A stretch of DNA of 64,000 nucleotides from Saccharomonospora amisosensis (GTDB lineage Bacteria > Actinomycetota > Actinomycetes > Mycobacteriales > Pseudonocardiaceae). Both the position numbers and the translations under genes were made by a program. Location of the stretch: the NCBI RefSeq assembly GCF_011761185.1, contig NZ_JAAOYM010000001.1, forward strand, positions 62,001 through 126,000, read 5' to 3'. Under the pieces are notes generated by a model. That model ran no database searches and was not told the DNA's origin. It saw only the letters and a list, made by a program, of their open reading frames with translations. Below, piece by piece: positions 26,941 through 33,343 of the stretch; position 1 is the stretch's first letter, and each line of letters opens with the position of its first letter.

Positions 26941-26997
26941 CGAGGTCTCCGGTAGATCGATCAACGACCAAGAAGATCGAGAACACCGGAGACCTCG
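26941..26997 (+). repeat. Perfect 13-bp hairpin hiding the transposase ribosome site
   Basis: CGAGGTCTCCGGT at 26941-26953 pairs exactly with ACCGGAGACCTCG at 26985-26997. The downstream arm contains the GGAG ribosome-binding site and touches the GTG start at 26997. In a long read-through mRNA this fold would mask the start, a known way in which insertion sequences avoid activation by host transcription. Confidence 0.65.
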
Positions 26998-27902
26998 TGG
27001 CCAGCGTAGCGGCGGCGGGGCGAGCCGACTTGACCGACGCGCAGTGGGCAGTACTGGAACCGTTGCTGCCGGTCGGTCAGAAGCCGGGTCGCCCACCGAA
27101 GTGGACCAAGCGTCAACTCATCGACGGGATTCGGTGGCGAGTACGTGTGGGCTCTCCCTGGCGCGATGTCCCACCGGTGTATGGGTCCTGGCAGAGTGTC
27201 TATGGGTTGTTCCGGCGCTGGCAGCGCGCTGGTGTGTGGGCGGTGACCCTGGCGGCATTGCAGAGCAGGGCCGACGCAGCCGGTGTGATCACGTGGGACG
27301 TGAGCGTGGATTCCACGATCAACCGAGCGCATCAGCATGCGGCGGGCGCGCGGGCCGAGAGCGAGGTGCAAAAGGAACCGCCGGGTGGGGTGGGCGCGCC
27401 CGAACCCGCTGACCACGCGTTGGGCCGGTCTCGAGGTGGATGGACCACCAAGCTGCATCTGACGACCGAACAGGGGCACAGACCGCTGTCGCTGCTGGTG
27501 ACGGCGGGGCAGCGTGGGGACAGTCCGCAGTTCGAGGCGGTGCTGGCTGGCATCCAGGTCGCCCGAACCGGTGGTGGACGAGCCCGGACCCGACCAGATC
27601 GGGTGCTGGCGGATAAGGCCTACAGTTCCCGCGCCAACCGGGCCCACCTGCGCAGACGTGGGATCGCATGCACCATCCCCCAGCCTGCCGATCAGATCCG
27701 GCATCGCCGCAGGCGTGGACGCAACGGCGGTCGACCACCAGCCTTCGACCCGCACACCTACAAACAGCGACACGCGGTCGAATGCGGAATCAACCGCCTC
27801 AAACGTCACCGAGCCCTCGCCACCCGATACGACAAGCTCGCCGTCCGCTACGAAGCCACCATCCACATCGCCGCAATCAACGAGTGGCTACCTCGCTTAT
27901 GA
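26997..27902 (+). CDS. IS5-family transposase
   Basis: A 301-residue DDE transposase: N-terminal [14 protein letters not shown] and [23 protein letters not shown], first catalytic aspartate in [15 protein letters not shown], then [17 protein letters not shown], second aspartate in [13 protein letters not shown] and the glutamate in [25 protein letters not shown] single uninterrupted frame starts at GTG 26997. The gene seems functional. It is of the same family as, but distinct from, the broken copy at 27914. Confidence 0.93.
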
Positions 27903-27913
27903 AACAGGCTCTA

Positions 27914-28343
27914 GGTCGTGTCCTGTAATTCATCGTAGCCAGAGGATGATGGCGGCGATGGTGAGTTCTGCCTGGTAGTAGGCGGCGCGTTTGGCGTAGC
28001 GGGTGGCTAGGTCGCGGAACTGTTTGAGCCGGTTGAAGCAGCGTTCGACGACGTTGCGCTGCTTGTACAACTCGGCATCGAAGGCGGGCGGGCGTCCGCC
28101 CCGTGAGCCGTGCGCGGCGCGGCGGGTCGAGGGGTGCGAATAGGCCTTGTCGGCGATGACCACCTCGGGACGGCGGCGCGGGCGACCAGGCCCGGTGCGA
28201 GCGACACGGATCCCGTCCAGCAGCGGCACCAATTGTGGATTGTCACCAGCCACCCCCGGGTGAGCACAACCCGCATGGGCAGCCCGCGTCCCTCGACCAC
28301 GAGGTGGATCTTGGTGCTCAATCCGCCGCGGGAACTGTCGCCG
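27914..28343 (-). pseudogene. IS5-family transposase, C-terminal remnant
   Basis: On the minus strand, DSSRGGLSTKIHLVVEGRGLPMRVVLT is followed by a frameshift near 28258, then GDNPQLVPLLDGI, VVIADKAYSHPSTRRA, an apparent internal deletion, [37 protein letters not shown] to the stop near 27930. The N-terminal third is gone where the IS21 element begins. Its outer end (GGTCGTGTCCTGTAATT at 27914) meets the TA of the neighbouring IS5 copy. Confidence 0.85.
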
Positions 28344-28829
28344 GATCCTGAAAACTGACCCCCTGTGGTACTCCGAAAGTTGACCCCCTCCTAGATCTTG
28401 GAGGGTGCTGAAGTTGGAGGATTGGGCTGAGATCCGCCGCTTGTATCGGGCGGAGGGTGTGCCGATCAAGGAGATCGCGCGGCGGCTGGGGGTGGCGCGT
28501 AACACGGTGCGGGCGGCGCTGCGGTCGGACGGGCCGCCGAAGTACCAACGGGCGCGCCGTGGTTCGGTGGCCGACGCGTACGAGCCGCAGATTCGTGCGC
28601 TGTTGCGGGAGTGGCCGAGGATGCCGACGCCGGTGATCTCGCAGCGGATCGGCTGGCCGTACTCGGAAGGGCCGTTGAAGAAGCTGCTGGCACGCATCCG
28701 CCCGGAGTACGTGGGTATCGATCCGGTGGACCGGGTGACCTACCAGCCCGGCGAGCTCGCGCAGTGCGATCTACTTATCCGCGAACCGGCCACTGGTCAC
28801 GTGGTCTGGAACGATGGCTTGCTGCTCGT

Positions 28830-29120
28830 AGACCCCTGAGTGCGATTGGGCCAGTAGTCCTCACCACAGGCCGTGGGCGGTCGGGCAGCAGCCTGCGGCG
28901 GCCGGATTCCGGTGTGTCTTCCGGGGTCCGGCCGCCGCGACCGGGTGGAATGTTCGTGGTTCGAGCCGCCCGCACGATCCGACGCCTCGTCATTCGCGAG
29001 TTTCGAGTTCTGACGTAGACCGGCGCCGTGCTGGTGCGCTGGGATCGCGAACAGCTCATCGGAGGCAAGCCCGTGAGGCTCGTAAGTAGGTCGCTGCGCG
29101 TTCTCGCCTGGATTTCGGAC
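28830..29120 (+). ncRNA. Predicted IS110 bridge RNA with four readable guides
   Basis: Target loop: AGTGCGAT at 28839-28846 equals the target left side at 28763-28770, and ACCACAG at 28863-28869 is the reverse complement of the right side CTGTGGT at 30421-30427. Donor loop: ATCGGAGG at 29058-29065 equals the element's right end at 30412-30419, and TAAGTAG at 29083-29089 is the reverse complement of CTACTTA at 28771-28777. All four segments occur in the order and polarity known for IS110/IS621 bridge RNAs. The outer RNA ends are estimates; expression likely needs the circular form's joined ends. Confidence 0.82.
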
Positions 29121-29152
29121 CAACCGAACAACACCTGATGTGGAGGGACGGA

Positions 29153-30400
29153 TTGAACCGGTACTGTGGGATCGACTGGGCCGAGGGCCATCACGACATC
29201 GCGGTCATCGATAACGAGGGCACGCTGCTATGCAAGAAGCGGATCGGCGACGACCCTGGCGGTCTGACCGAGCTGATCCAACTGCTCGCCGGTGTCGGAG
29301 ACACGGACGAGGACCCGATTCCCGTCGCAATCGAAACACCACGGGGCCTGTTGGTCGCTGCGCTACGCGCGACGGGTCGGCCCGTTTTCGCGATCAACCC
29401 GATGGCCGTGGCTCGCTACCGCGAACGCTACACCGTCGCTCGCGCCAAGTCCGACCACGCTGACGCCATGACCTTGGCGAACATCCTGCGCGTCGATGCA
29501 CACCTGCACCGCCGTCTTCCGGCCGACAGTGAGCTCGCCCAGGCCGTCGCGGTGCTCGCTCGCGCACAGCAAGACGCGGTCTGGCGGCGCATCAGGGCCG
29601 GCAACGAACTGCGATCGTTGCTGCGCGAGTACTACCCCGCGATGCTTGACGCCTTCGCAGCCAAGTCCGCTACCAACCTCGCCAAGCCCGAGGCGCGAGC
29701 GGTGCTTGCCATCGCCCCGACGCCGGCTCAGGCCATGAAGGTAACCAAGGCACGAGTGGCAGCGGCATTGCGTCGGGCGGGCCGTCGCCGGGGCGTCGAG
29801 CAGCTCGCCGCCACGATCGTCGACAAGCTGCGGAAGCCTGGCCTGCGGCAACCGGCTCTGGTGGAGAAGGCGATGGGGCGCCAGGCATTGGTCTTGCTCG
29901 CGATGCTCGATACCGCCTGCACCGGCGCCAACGACCTGGAGCAGGCCTCGGCCGAAGAGTTCCGCAAACACCCGGACCACGCCATCATCACAAGCTTCCC
30001 TGGTCTGGCCGATCTCACCGGAGCCCGCATTCTCGCCGAACTCGGCGATGACCGCACCCGATTCGGCGACGCCCGTGCGTTGAAGGCCTACGCCGGATCC
30101 GCTCCGGTCACCCGGGCGTCCGGCAAGGCCATTGCGATTACGCACAGACGCGTCAAGAACGACCGACTCGCTGCGGTCGGCTGGGTTTGGGGCACCACCC
30201 TCGTCGTTCTCCCGGGACCTGCGCAACAGCACTACCGACGCCGACGGGACCACGGCGACGCACACGCACCCGCGGTCCGTCACCTGTTCAATAAGATACT
30301 GGGCCAGCTCTACCACTGCCTACAGACCGACCAGACCTACGACCCAATCAAGGCCTTCGGGCATCCAGACAGCGCACCGCGTGAACCCATAGCCACTTGA
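29153..30400 (+). CDS. IS110-family transposase (DEDD/serine recombinase)
   Basis: A protein of about 415 residues. N-terminal RuvC-like DEDD domain: YCGIDWAEGHHDIAVID, IETPRGLLVAAL, and KSDHADAMTLANIL. C-terminal Tnp20 domain: ITSFPGLADLTGARILAELGD and YAGSAPVTRASGKA with the catalytic serine. TTG 29153 has GGAGGGA 5 bp upstream; ATG 29138 would add five residues. A short stretch GTTLVVLPG near residue 345 looks frame-shifted and back relative to relatives, so activity is uncertain. It acts with the bridge RNA encoded just upstream. Confidence 0.88.
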   Translation: MNRYCGIDWAEGHHDIAVIDNEGTLLCKKRIGDDPGGLTELIQLLAGVGDTDEDPIPVAIETPRGLLVAALRATGRPVFAINPMAVARYRERYTVARAKSDHADAMTLANILRVDAHLHRRLPADSELAQAVAVLARAQQDAVWRRIRAGNELRSLLREYYPAMLDAFAAKSATNLAKPEARAVLAIAPTPAQAMKVTKARVAAALRRAGRRRGVEQLAATIVDKLRKPGLRQPALVEKAMGRQALVLLAMLDTACTGANDLEQASAEEFRKHPDHAIITSFPGLADLTGARILAELGDDRTRFGDARALKAYAGSAPVTRASGKAIAITHRRVKNDRLAAVGWVWGTTLVVLPGPAQQHYRRRRDHGDAHAPAVRHLFNKILGQLYHCLQTDQTYDPIKAFGHPDSAPREPIAT

Positions 30401-31316
30401 CAAATAGCCAAATCGGAGGTCTGTGGTTTCCCGCGCCGCGGATCCCGGTCGGGCCGGGCCAGCAGCGGATGCTGCCGGTGCTGGTGATGACGCTGGCGTT
30501 TTCCCGGTTCATGGCCGCGACGATGATCCCGTCCCGGCAGGCCGGCGACATCCTCTCGGGGATGTGGGCGCTGATCTGCGGGATCGGCCGGGTGACCAAG
30601 ACGCTGTTGTGGGACCGGGAGTCCGCGATCGGTGGTGGCGGGCGGGTCAGCACACCGGCAGCGGCGTTCGCCGGCACGCTGGCCACCCAGATCCGGTTGG
30701 CGCCGCCGCGTGATCCGGAGTTCAAGGGCATGGTGGAGCGCCACAACGGATTCCTGGAGACCTCGTTCCTGCCCGGCCGGACGTTCGGCTCGCCAGCGGA
30801 CTTCAACGAGCAGCTCACCGAGTGGCTGGCCCGGGCCAACACCCGCACCGTGCGCTCGATCCAGGGACGCCCGGTGGATCTGCTGGAGGTGGACTACCAA
30901 GCGATGCTGCCGCTGCCACCGGTCGCCCCACCGATCGGCCTGACCCATCGAGTGCGGCTGCCGCGTGACTACCACGTGCGTGTCGACACCGTTGACTACT
31001 CCGTCGATCCGCGGTGCATCGGCCGGTTCGTGGACGTGACCGCCTCCCTGCGGGAAGTGACGGTGGTCTGTGACGGGCAGGTCGTGGCCCGCCACGAGCG
31101 GTCCTGGGCCAAACACGGCGTGGTCACCGACCCGGGCCACGCCGCCACCGCGCAGCAGATGCGCCAGGCACTGGCCGAGGATCGGCAACGACGTCAGGCA
31201 GCTACCCGCCACCATGCCGACGGCCACGCCGTCATGCTGCGGGCCCTGCCGGACTACGACGCCCTGTTCGGCGTCGACTTCAACCCGTCCGCACCAGTGA
31301 CGAAAGCGAGGAACGA

Positions 31317-32129
31317 GTGACCACAACCACCACGGCGGCACCCGTCGCCGGGCCGAAGGACGGCCTGCCCTCGATGATCGCCTACCTCACCCGGGTGCTG
31401 AAGACACCCACCATCGGCGCGTTCTGGGAAGAACTGGCCGCCCAGGCCCGCGACGAGAACTGGTCGCACGAGGAGTACCTCGCCGCGCTCCTGCAGCGCC
31501 AGGTCGCCGACCGGGAGTCCAAAGGCACCATCATGCGCATCCGCACCGCGCACTTCCCGCAGGTCAAAACCCTGGAGGACTTCAACCTCGACCACCTGCC
31601 GTCGCTGCGCCGCGACGTGCTCGCGCACCTGGCCACCACCACCTTCGTCGCCAAGGCCGAGAACGTCATCCTGCTGGGCCCGCCCGGCATCGGCAAGACA
31701 CACCTGGCCATCGGACTGGGCGTCAAGGCCTGCCACGCCGGCTACTCGGTGCTGTTCGACACCGCCAGCAACTGGATCGCCAGGCTGTCCGCCGCCCACC
31801 ACGCCGGCCAACTGGAGGCCGAGCTGAAGAAGATCCGTCGCTACAAACTGATCATCGTCGACGAGGTCGGCTACATCCCCTTCGACCAGGACGCAGCCAA
31901 CCTGTTCTTCCAGCTCGTCGCCTCCCGCTACGAACAAGGCTCGATCATGGTTACCTCAAACCTGCCCTTCGGACGCTGGGGCGAAACGTTCTCCGACGAC
32001 GTCGTCGCCGCCGCCATGATCGACCGGCTCGTCCACCACGCCGAGGTCCTCACCCTCACCGGCGACTCCTACCGCACACGGCAACGCCGCGAACTACTCG
32101 CCAAAGACAACCGCGCCAAACACGACTAA
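31317..32129 (+). CDS. istB: IS21 helper ATPase IstB
   Basis: A 270-residue AAA+ ATPase: Walker A LLGPPGIGKTHLAIGLG, Walker B YKLIIVDEVGYIPF, sensor region IMVTSNLPFGRWGETF and a C-terminal DRLVHHAEVLTLTGDSYR. The GTG start overlaps the istA stop. It selects targets and stimulates IstA; with istA split the element cannot move by itself. Confidence 0.93.
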   Translation: MTTTTTAAPVAGPKDGLPSMIAYLTRVLKTPTIGAFWEELAAQARDENWSHEEYLAALLQRQVADRESKGTIMRIRTAHFPQVKTLEDFNLDHLPSLRRDVLAHLATTTFVAKAENVILLGPPGIGKTHLAIGLGVKACHAGYSVLFDTASNWIARLSAAHHAGQLEAELKKIRRYKLIIVDEVGYIPFDQDAANLFFQLVASRYEQGSIMVTSNLPFGRWGETFSDDVVAAAMIDRLVHHAEVLTLTGDSYRTRQRRELLAKDNRAKHD

Positions 32130-32140
32130 CCCCAAGGGGG

Positions 32141-33343
32141 TCAACTTTCCCGGAACCGCACGGGGTCAGTTTTCTGCGTCCGTTGACACCAGGCTCGCCC
32201 TCCGGGGTGCCCGCAGGGTAGATGACCAGCTTGGGCTCGTATTGATCGCGCTTGGATGACCAAGCGCGGGCCTCGTTCACACAGGTGCTCGGTCAACTCC
32301 GCGGCAGCCGGGCCATGGCCGATCGCCCCCAGCTCCCAACGCACGCCGTCACCGCTCTCCAGTCGACGGGCTGTGAGATACACCAGCGAGCCGCCATCAA
32401 CCAACGCCGGACGCCAGTACCCTCCAATCGGGTTGACAACCTCAGGCACGGCATCTGGGTGGGCGCTGATGCGGCACACGCGCTGATCGGTGACGGTAAG
32501 CCGTAGCCAGAACCCGTCATGGCTCTCGTCGGGGGCAATGGTGATGCCGGACCAGGCGACGCTGCGCGGCTGGTCGAGCACTCCGCGCAATGTGCTGAGG
32601 TCCACGGCTTGATCACGGTCCCAGTGGAGCTTGACCCTCTCATCGGCGGTGATCGAGCCGCTGAGTTCGCCCTCGTACTCTCCACGGAGGTACACGAAAC
32701 CGCACAGGTGGAGCGAATCGGAGACCAGACGGCCGTCGGTGTAGGTGAAGCTGACGCTGCGTCCCTGGCCCCGCCACCGCAGCGGCGCAACCAACCGCGC
32801 TTCGGGGGCAAGCTGCTTCCACCACGAGACGGGGATGTCCCACGGTGAAACGGTGGCGATCACGCGGTCGTACGGAGCGTGGGAGGGGTACCCGAGCCCA
32901 CCGTCTCCGGTGATCACGTGCACGCCACCGTAACCGGTGGCAGCCAACGCTTGCGAGGCTTTCGCCGTCACGTCGGGATCGATGTCGACGGTGGTCACCA
33001 GGTCCGCGCGACCAGTCAACTGGGCGAGCAGGCTGGCGTTATACCCGGTTCCCGCGCCGATCTCGAGGATGCGGTTGCCAGGTTCGACATCGAGCTGGTC
33101 GAGCATGGCCGCGACCAGCCATGGCGCCGACGCGCAGGACAGCGACCGACCATCCTCGAACCGATGGGTGACCACCGCCTGCCACGGGTCGTAGGCGACC
33201 GCCAAGTCGGCATCCGGCACGAACTCGTGGCGTGGCGTGTCACGCAGAACCCGCTCGACCGCGCCCTGTCGCGCGTGTCCCGCCTTTCGAATCCGCTCGA
33301 CCATCTCCGCGCGCAGCGCGTCGGGCGACGTCGTGGTCTGCAT
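32141..33343 (-). CDS. fxlM: FxLD-system methyltransferase (second copy), 3' end damaged
   Basis: An isoaspartate-methyltransferase-like enzyme: VLRDTPRHEFVPD, SAM site RILEIGAGTGYNASLLAQL, DRVIATVSPWDIPVSWW and a long C-terminal domain. At about 32277 the frame slips: the natural ending (NEARAWSSKRDQYEPKLVIYPAGTPEGE) continues in another frame, and the last codons run into the IS21 end at 32174. The catalytic domain is whole, so some activity is possible. It is the last gene of the lanthipeptide cluster and 45 bp after the unknown protein at 33389. Confidence 0.8.
   Translation of the reverse strand: MQTTTSPDALRAEMVERIRKAGHARQGAVERVLRDTPRHEFVPDADLAVAYDPWQAVVTHRFEDGRSLSCASAPWLVAAMLDQLDVEPGNRILEIGAGTGYNASLLAQLTGRADLVTTVDIDPDVTAKASQALAATGYGGVHVITGDGGLGYPSHAPYDRVIATVSPWDIPVSWWKQLAPEARLVAPLRWRGQGRSVSFTYTDGRLVSDSLHLCGFVYLRGEYEGELSGSITADERVKLHWDRDQAVDLSTLRGVLDQPRSVAWSGITIAPDESHDGFWLRLTVTDQRVCRISAHPDAVPEVVNPIGGYWRPALVDGGSLVYLTARRLESGDGVRWELGAIGHGPAAAELTEHLCERGPRLVIQARSIRAQAGHLPCGHPGGRAWCQRTQKTDPVRFRES

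What the first reader, a model, noticed from the sequence alone, without database searches (positions are those of the whole stretch)
28773..30427. IS110 bridge RNA whose target and donor guides can be read directly
The IS110 copy splits istA, so both target halves and both element ends are known. In the non-coding left end, AGTGCGAT (28839) equals the left target, ACCACAG (28863) is the complement of CTGTGGT at the right target, ATCGGAGG (29058) equals the element right end, and TAAGTAG (29083) is the complement of the CTACTTA left end. Four guide matches in correct order, with CT as core, make a chance explanation unlikely. It also predicts other istA genes as targets.
Basis: partly seen in the sequence, partly recalled or inferred. 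Interest (0 to 1): 0.8.

Follow-up and report, generated by a model that had tools for sequence, protein, structure and literature searches.

The report
RNA-guided jumping gene targeting another transposase
A small mobile DNA element of the IS110 family carries a guide RNA whose four pairing segments match its own two ends and the exact spot, in the active-site codons of another mobile element's transposase, where it sits; this is a well-documented new example of a mechanism first described in 2024, not a new mechanism.

Summary
An intact 1,648-bp IS110-group element (window 28773-30420) with one extra CT at its ends splits istA of an IS21 element. Its non-coding left end holds four guide words in the IS621 order, and none of the window's 6,391 CT sites matches both target guides by chance. 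I tested the stated refutation: in about 37 homologous elements (49-77% identical recombinase) with different targets, the right-target guide follows the element's own flank (mean 4.27 matched nt beyond the core versus 2.31 when flanks are swapped), and 9/47 match perfectly over 21 nt against 0/282 nulls. Donor guides change together with the element ends. The donor-binding loop is supported by strong covariation (79 compensatory cells versus 23.6 shuffled). The target covers the codons of the first catalytic Asp of IstA. Uninterrupted istA genes in other genomes of the family carry the same 15-mer; the host genome and its sister have no free copy left. Catalytic-codon targeting is already published for ISEc21 (IS3, second D), so this is a new member of a known kind. 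Less expected: target and donor loops lie 140-369 nt apart with a covarying extra domain, and at least 21 of 37 relatives sit in other transposable elements.

The parts
28773..30420 (+). IS110-group insertion sequence, 1,648 bp, flanked by one CT on each side
   Evidence: Ends read; five identical copies in two genomes; homology of relatives stops at this right end plus CT
28763..28772 (+). Left target AGTGCGAT plus core CT, in istA codons Cys-Asp(catalytic)-Leu
   Evidence: D aligns with D124 of IS5376 IstA, the first D of the DDE triad (PMC10122671)
30421..30427 (+). Core CT plus right target GTGGT (Leu-Trp codons of istA)
   Evidence: translation across the junction QCD|LWFP
28811..28897 (+). 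Target-binding loop region of the bridge RNA; inner hairpin 28848-28851 with 28857-28860
   Evidence: Inner hairpin found de novo with compensatory changes in all 4 pairs
28839..28846 (+). Left target guide AGTGCGAT
   Evidence: same position in relatives with other targets
28863..28869 (+). Right target guide ACCACAG, complement of CTGTGGT
   Evidence: right-flank test in relatives
28952..29050 (+). Conserved structured linker domain between the two loops
   Evidence: Alignment A4, three helices, 93% paired, 25 compensatory cells versus 8.1 shuffled, 0/500
29030..29117 (+). Donor-binding loop region: outer stem 29046-29049/29097-29100 and 29052-29055/29093-29096, inner hairpin 29068-29071/29077-29080
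   Evidence: 36 sequences, 97% of cells paired, covariation 0.465 versus 0.236 shuffled
29058..29065 (+). Left donor guide ATCGGAGG (equals the element right end)
   Evidence: changes with the right end in relatives (ATCGGATG, ATGAGATG, GTGAGATG)
29083..29089 (+). Right donor guide TAAGTAG (complement of CT + left end ACTTA)
   Evidence: changes with the left end in relatives (TCATTAG/AATGA, CTATTAG/AATAG, TTATTAG/AATAA)
29138..30400 (+). DEDD recombinase gene; likely true start TTG 29153 behind GGAGG 29142-29146. DEDD = D13, E66, D106, D109; Ser = S328
   Evidence: Pfam DEDD_Tnp_IS110 and Transposase_20; invariant residues; aligned with IS621 8wt6
30397..30402 (+). TTGACA, -35 of a promoter formed only in the circle; the -10 (TCTACT, TCTAAT in most relatives) spans the joined ends 17-18 nt away
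   Evidence: TTGAC near the right end in all 38 elements listed
28336..32188 (+). Host IS21 element (istA 28405-31320 interrupted, istB 31317-32129)
   Evidence: ends TGTCGCC...GTTGACA

Best explanation
This is an IS110-group insertion sequence that excises as a scarless circle. Joining its ends creates a promoter that transcribes the left end as a bridge RNA and then the recombinase. The recombinase uses the target-binding loop (LTG pairing with the bottom strand, RTG with the top strand) to find AGTGCGAT-CT-GTGGT, and the donor-binding loop (LDG, RDG) to hold its own joined ends ATCGGAGGT-CT-ACTTA. A tetramer with DEDD plus serine active sites exchanges strands at the CT core, so the element lands between the catalytic-Asp and Trp codons of IS21 istA. 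Shown here: ends, guides, target, guide-target co-change in relatives, donor co-change, donor-loop fold by covariation, intact catalytic residues, multiple identical copies. Inferred from IS621 and ISEc21: RNA expression, circle formation, chemistry.
For: guides, chance; recombinase, DEDD and Ser aligned with IS621; guides follow targets and ends in relatives: 25/47 with at most 1 mismatch in 21 nt versus 5/282 null; 9/47 perfect versus 0/282; donor-loop covariation; target-loop hairpin; circle-junction promoter in relatives; copies in two divergent istA types at the same codon; uninterrupted istA with the same site. Mechanism: PMC11208160, PMC11208158, PMC11187229.
Against: No transcript, circle or transposition event was observed. 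The minimum-energy fold of the single sequence does not display both loops cleanly. The outer stem of the target loop was not recovered in the consensus of the divergent set. Several distant relatives gave no four-guide solution. The window element's own -10 is a poor match (TCTACT).
Confidence: 0.94

Rival explanations
1. The site is chosen by protein-DNA recognition and the four guide words are coincidence or leftovers of the ends.
For: No experiment was done here; short words of 7-8 nt occur by chance elsewhere in the window.
Against: Word pairs at loop spacing match no other CT site of the window; relatives with similar recombinases sit in different targets that match their own guides; covarying loop structure.
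Confidence: 0.02
2. IS1111-group element (subterminal inverted repeats, guide RNA downstream of the gene).
For: Same broad recombinase family.
Against: The guides lie upstream of the gene and the bottom-strand guide precedes the top-strand guide, the IS110 arrangement (PMC11208160, PMC11187229); only about 20 bp lie between stop codon and right end; no inverted repeat is visible between the two ends.
Confidence: 0.01
3. The bridge RNA here works as two separate RNAs (target-loop RNA and donor-loop RNA) instead of one bispecific molecule. This is a variant of the best explanation, not exclusive of it.
For: 188 nt between RTG and LDG here, 140-369 nt in relatives, as long as the whole 177-nt IS621 RNA; in the IS621 synaptic complex the two loops come from different RNA molecules (PMC11208158); the abundant ISEc21 RNA is only 74 nt.
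Against: No sign of separate promoters or processing was tested; a conserved linker domain adjoins the donor loop, which fits one long RNA as well.
Confidence: 0.3

Closest known systems
IS621 (Escherichia coli) bridge recombinase, PMC11208160 and PMC11208158
   Same: Recombinase family, DEDD and Ser residues, CT core, left-end RNA with LTG-RTG then LDG-RDG, junction promoter
   Different: Targets istA instead of REP; longer recombinase (420 aa versus a 328-residue IS621 chain); loops separated by 188 nt with an extra conserved domain; IS621 RNA is 177 nt in all
ISEc21 (IS110 family), PMC11187229
   Same: Upstream non-coding region; target lies in codons around a catalytic Asp of another element's DDE transposase; no duplication at the site
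   Different: ISEc21 hits the second D of IS3-family transposases, this one the first D of IS21 IstA; the donor guides can also be read here
IS4321/IS5075 (IS1111 group; Partridge and Hall 2003, known here only as a citation in the papers read)
   Same: Guided insertion into other mobile elements; several relatives here sit in the end of an IS256-type element
   Different: IS1111 group, RNA downstream, targets Tn21 terminal inverted repeats
IS117-annotated actinobacterial IS110 elements
   Same: About 65% nucleotide identity in the recombinase gene region
   Different: Match does not extend into the left end; target not compared

Membership tests
IS110 group (bridge-RNA IS110) | DEDD RuvC-like domain plus Tnp domain with catalytic Ser | tested here: met
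   Pfam hits; D13, E66, D106, D109, S328 invariant and aligned with IS621
IS110 group (bridge-RNA IS110) | Long non-coding left end upstream of the gene, short right end | tested here: met
   365-380 nt left, about 20 nt right
IS110 group (bridge-RNA IS110) | Target and donor guides in order LTG, RTG, LDG, RDG around a short core | tested here: met
IS110 group (bridge-RNA IS110) | Internal donor-binding loop in the RNA | tested here: met
   Covariation in 36 sequences
IS110 group (bridge-RNA IS110) | Internal target-binding loop in the RNA | tested here: inconclusive
   Inner hairpin between LTG and RTG supported by compensatory changes; outer stem seen in many single folds but not in the consensus
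IS110 group (bridge-RNA IS110) | Promoter reconstituted in the circular form | tested here: inconclusive
   TTGACA-17/18-TCTAAT across the joined ends in most of 38 elements; weaker -10 in the window element; activity not testable
IS110 group (bridge-RNA IS110) | RNA expressed and bound by the recombinase; circle formed | not testable with these tools
   Needs RNA-seq, RNP pull-down, junction PCR
IS1111 group | RNA downstream of the gene | tested here: not met
   Guides are upstream
IS1111 group | Subterminal inverted repeats of 7-17 bp | not tested
   None seen on inspection of the ends, but no systematic search was run

The most novel reading that the evidence does not exclude
A clade of actinobacterial IS110 elements with a bipartite bridge RNA: target loop and donor loop far apart (140-369 nt), joined by a separate conserved domain and perhaps acting as separate RNAs, whose target guides have repeatedly been reprogrammed onto conserved parts of other transposable elements (DDE motif codons, element ends), making them specialised parasites of transposons.
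Probability: 0.35. Interest if true: 0.6.

Novelty: new member of a known kind. Interest (0 to 1): 0.42.

Why it matters
It gives a natural series of about 38 related elements in which target guide, target, donor guide and donor can all be read. That shows how bridge RNAs are retargeted in nature, and supplies new recombinase-RNA pairs from high-GC hosts. It also extends the ISEc21 observation: guides aimed at catalytic codons hit sites that the victim transposon cannot easily change.

Tried and rejected
Rfam: no bridge RNA family hit for the window. Single-sequence folding of the left end: very stable but ambiguous, dominated by a GC-rich hairpin in the linker. PDB search with the single recombinase: no hit; the profile of 14 relatives found IS621 and ISCro4. 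A tRNA T-arm-like target in L056/L084 was considered, but ARAGORN and Rfam call no tRNA there. My first left-end search was biased by self-matches and was redone with order and distance constraints and with a null. An apparently strong helix between the linker and the 5' arm of the donor stem is conserved but hardly covaries, so it is not used.

Full report
Observation. istA of an IS21 element is split at CAGTGCGAT-CT; the insert runs 28773-30420 and is followed by CT-GTGGTTTCC. The left non-coding end holds AGTGCGAT (28839), ACCACAG (28863), ATCGGAGG (29058) and TAAGTAG (29083), each once. None of 6,391 CT sites on either strand of the window matches both target words at a loop-like spacing; the reconstructed empty site does. 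In Markov copies of the left end the target words co-occurred at 5e-5 and the donor words never (20,000 trials).

The element. The 420-aa product hits Pfam DEDD_Tnp_IS110 and Transposase_20. Among 14 aligned relatives the DEDD residues (D13, E66, D106, D109) and S328 are invariant. A profile of these finds IS621 (8wt6) and ISCro4 (9t56) in the PDB, with the serine aligned to the IS621 catalytic serine (role, PMC11208158). Homologues start near MNRYCGID, so TTG 29153 behind GGAGG is the likelier start. The own genome has three identical copies and a sister species two.

Test of the guides on relatives. The right end is recognised by its motif alone, so the right flank is an unbiased target. Across 48 loci the complement of CT plus right flank is found in the left end with a mean of 4.27 further nt versus 2.31 for swapped flanks; 56% versus 5% reach 5 nt. 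A joint search for left end, LTG, RTG and RDG gave 25 of 47 loci with at most one mismatch in 21 nt against 5 of 282 with flanks of other loci, and 9 perfect against 0. At two mismatches the null rises to 14%, so single weak cases are not secure. Donor guides change with the ends: ACTTA/TAAGTAG, AATGA/TCATTAG, AATAG/CTATTAG, AATAA/TTATTAG, AATCG/CGATTAG on the left, and ATCGGAGG, ATCGGATG, ATGAGATG, GTGAGATG on the right.

Structure. For 36 donor-loop regions RNAalifold finds, unaided, a 12-bp outer stem, LDG and RDG facing each other, and a 4-bp inner hairpin. 97% of cells pair, with 79 compensatory cells versus 23.6 in shuffles and a collapse when slid. In the target loop the inner hairpin between LTG and RTG is found with changes on both sides in all four pairs; its outer stem shows in many single folds but not in the consensus. 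Between the loops lie 188 nt (140-369 in relatives), more than the whole 177-nt IS621 RNA. The last 100 nt of this linker form a conserved domain with its own covarying helices (0/500 shuffles on all measures).

Promoter. The right ends carry TTGAC(A), and the joined ends supply TCTAAT at 17 or 18 nt in most of 38 elements, as expected for a promoter made by circle formation (PMC11208160, PMC11187229). In the window element the -10 is TCTACT.

Target. Joined across the insert, istA reads QCDLWFP, and the D aligns with D124 of IS5376 IstA, the first D of its DDE triad (PMC10122671). Uninterrupted istA genes of the same bacterial family keep the 15-mer: 5 of 28 sites exactly, 13 with one mismatch, mostly at codon third positions such as GAT/GAC. 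The 20-mer site with at most 2 mismatches was found in 34 of 297 family genomes but not in the host genome or its sister. In the host the element occupies two divergent istA types at the same codon.

Targets of relatives. Pfam scans and flank comparison place at least 21 of 37 relatives in other transposable elements: the end of an IS256-type element (L006, L037, L058, L059, L061, L065, L072, L088), a DDE_Tnp_4/1 transposase (L051, L062, L078, L081, L092), an IS110-type transposase (L068, L106), IS3 genes (L023, L030, L086, L094), a rve integrase-type gene (L035) and DDE_Tnp_1 (L093). Some assignments rest on similarity to a scanned relative or on reading the sequence (L030, L062, L078, L092 and all IS256-type cases but L065), and many of these share ancestry, so this is a tendency, not a rate. 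No matched background was run.

Comparison and verdict. Siddiquee et al. showed that ISEc21 targets the codons around the second D of IS3 transposases, so neither the guide mechanism nor catalytic-codon targeting is new. What is added is a fully readable element in a new host group, the IS21 first-D target, a comparative test across relatives, and an unusually long two-part RNA. I read only text and legends of the papers, not their figures, so a long-linker bridge RNA may already be pictured there.

Noticed in passing
window 28331-28335 and 32189-32193; L138, L139, L140, L141: IS21 arms look shuffled among three IS110 copies: 5-bp repeats GGAAC (window left, 31k copy right) and CCAGG (window right, 161k copy left) pair up between copies, as if identical, inverted IS110 copies had recombined and inverted the DNA between them.
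   Followed up: partly
window 28747-28772 and the same place in L133-L137: About 25 bp left of the insert are identical among all copies within each of the two species but differ between the species, while sequence further out is identical between species; looks like gene conversion spilling out of the element.
   Followed up: partly
window 28952-28970 with 29040-29052: The 5' arm of the donor-loop stem can instead form a 14-bp helix with TCGTGGTTCGAGC in the linker; 96% paired in 17 relatives but with little covariation. A switch or chance; unexplained.
   Followed up: partly
window 28895-28940: GC-rich perfect hairpin of about 16 bp in the linker between the two loops; blastn homology to relatives begins only after it.
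   Followed up: no
L011, L016, L049 right flanks: Targets lie at the edge of a repeat of roughly 90-140 bp that occurs in inverted orientation in different loci, possibly a small repeat or MITE.
   Followed up: no
window 27930-28335: The IS21 appears to be inserted in a second, broken IS5-type transposase gene next to an intact one at 26997-27902: a pile-up of nested elements.
   Followed up: no
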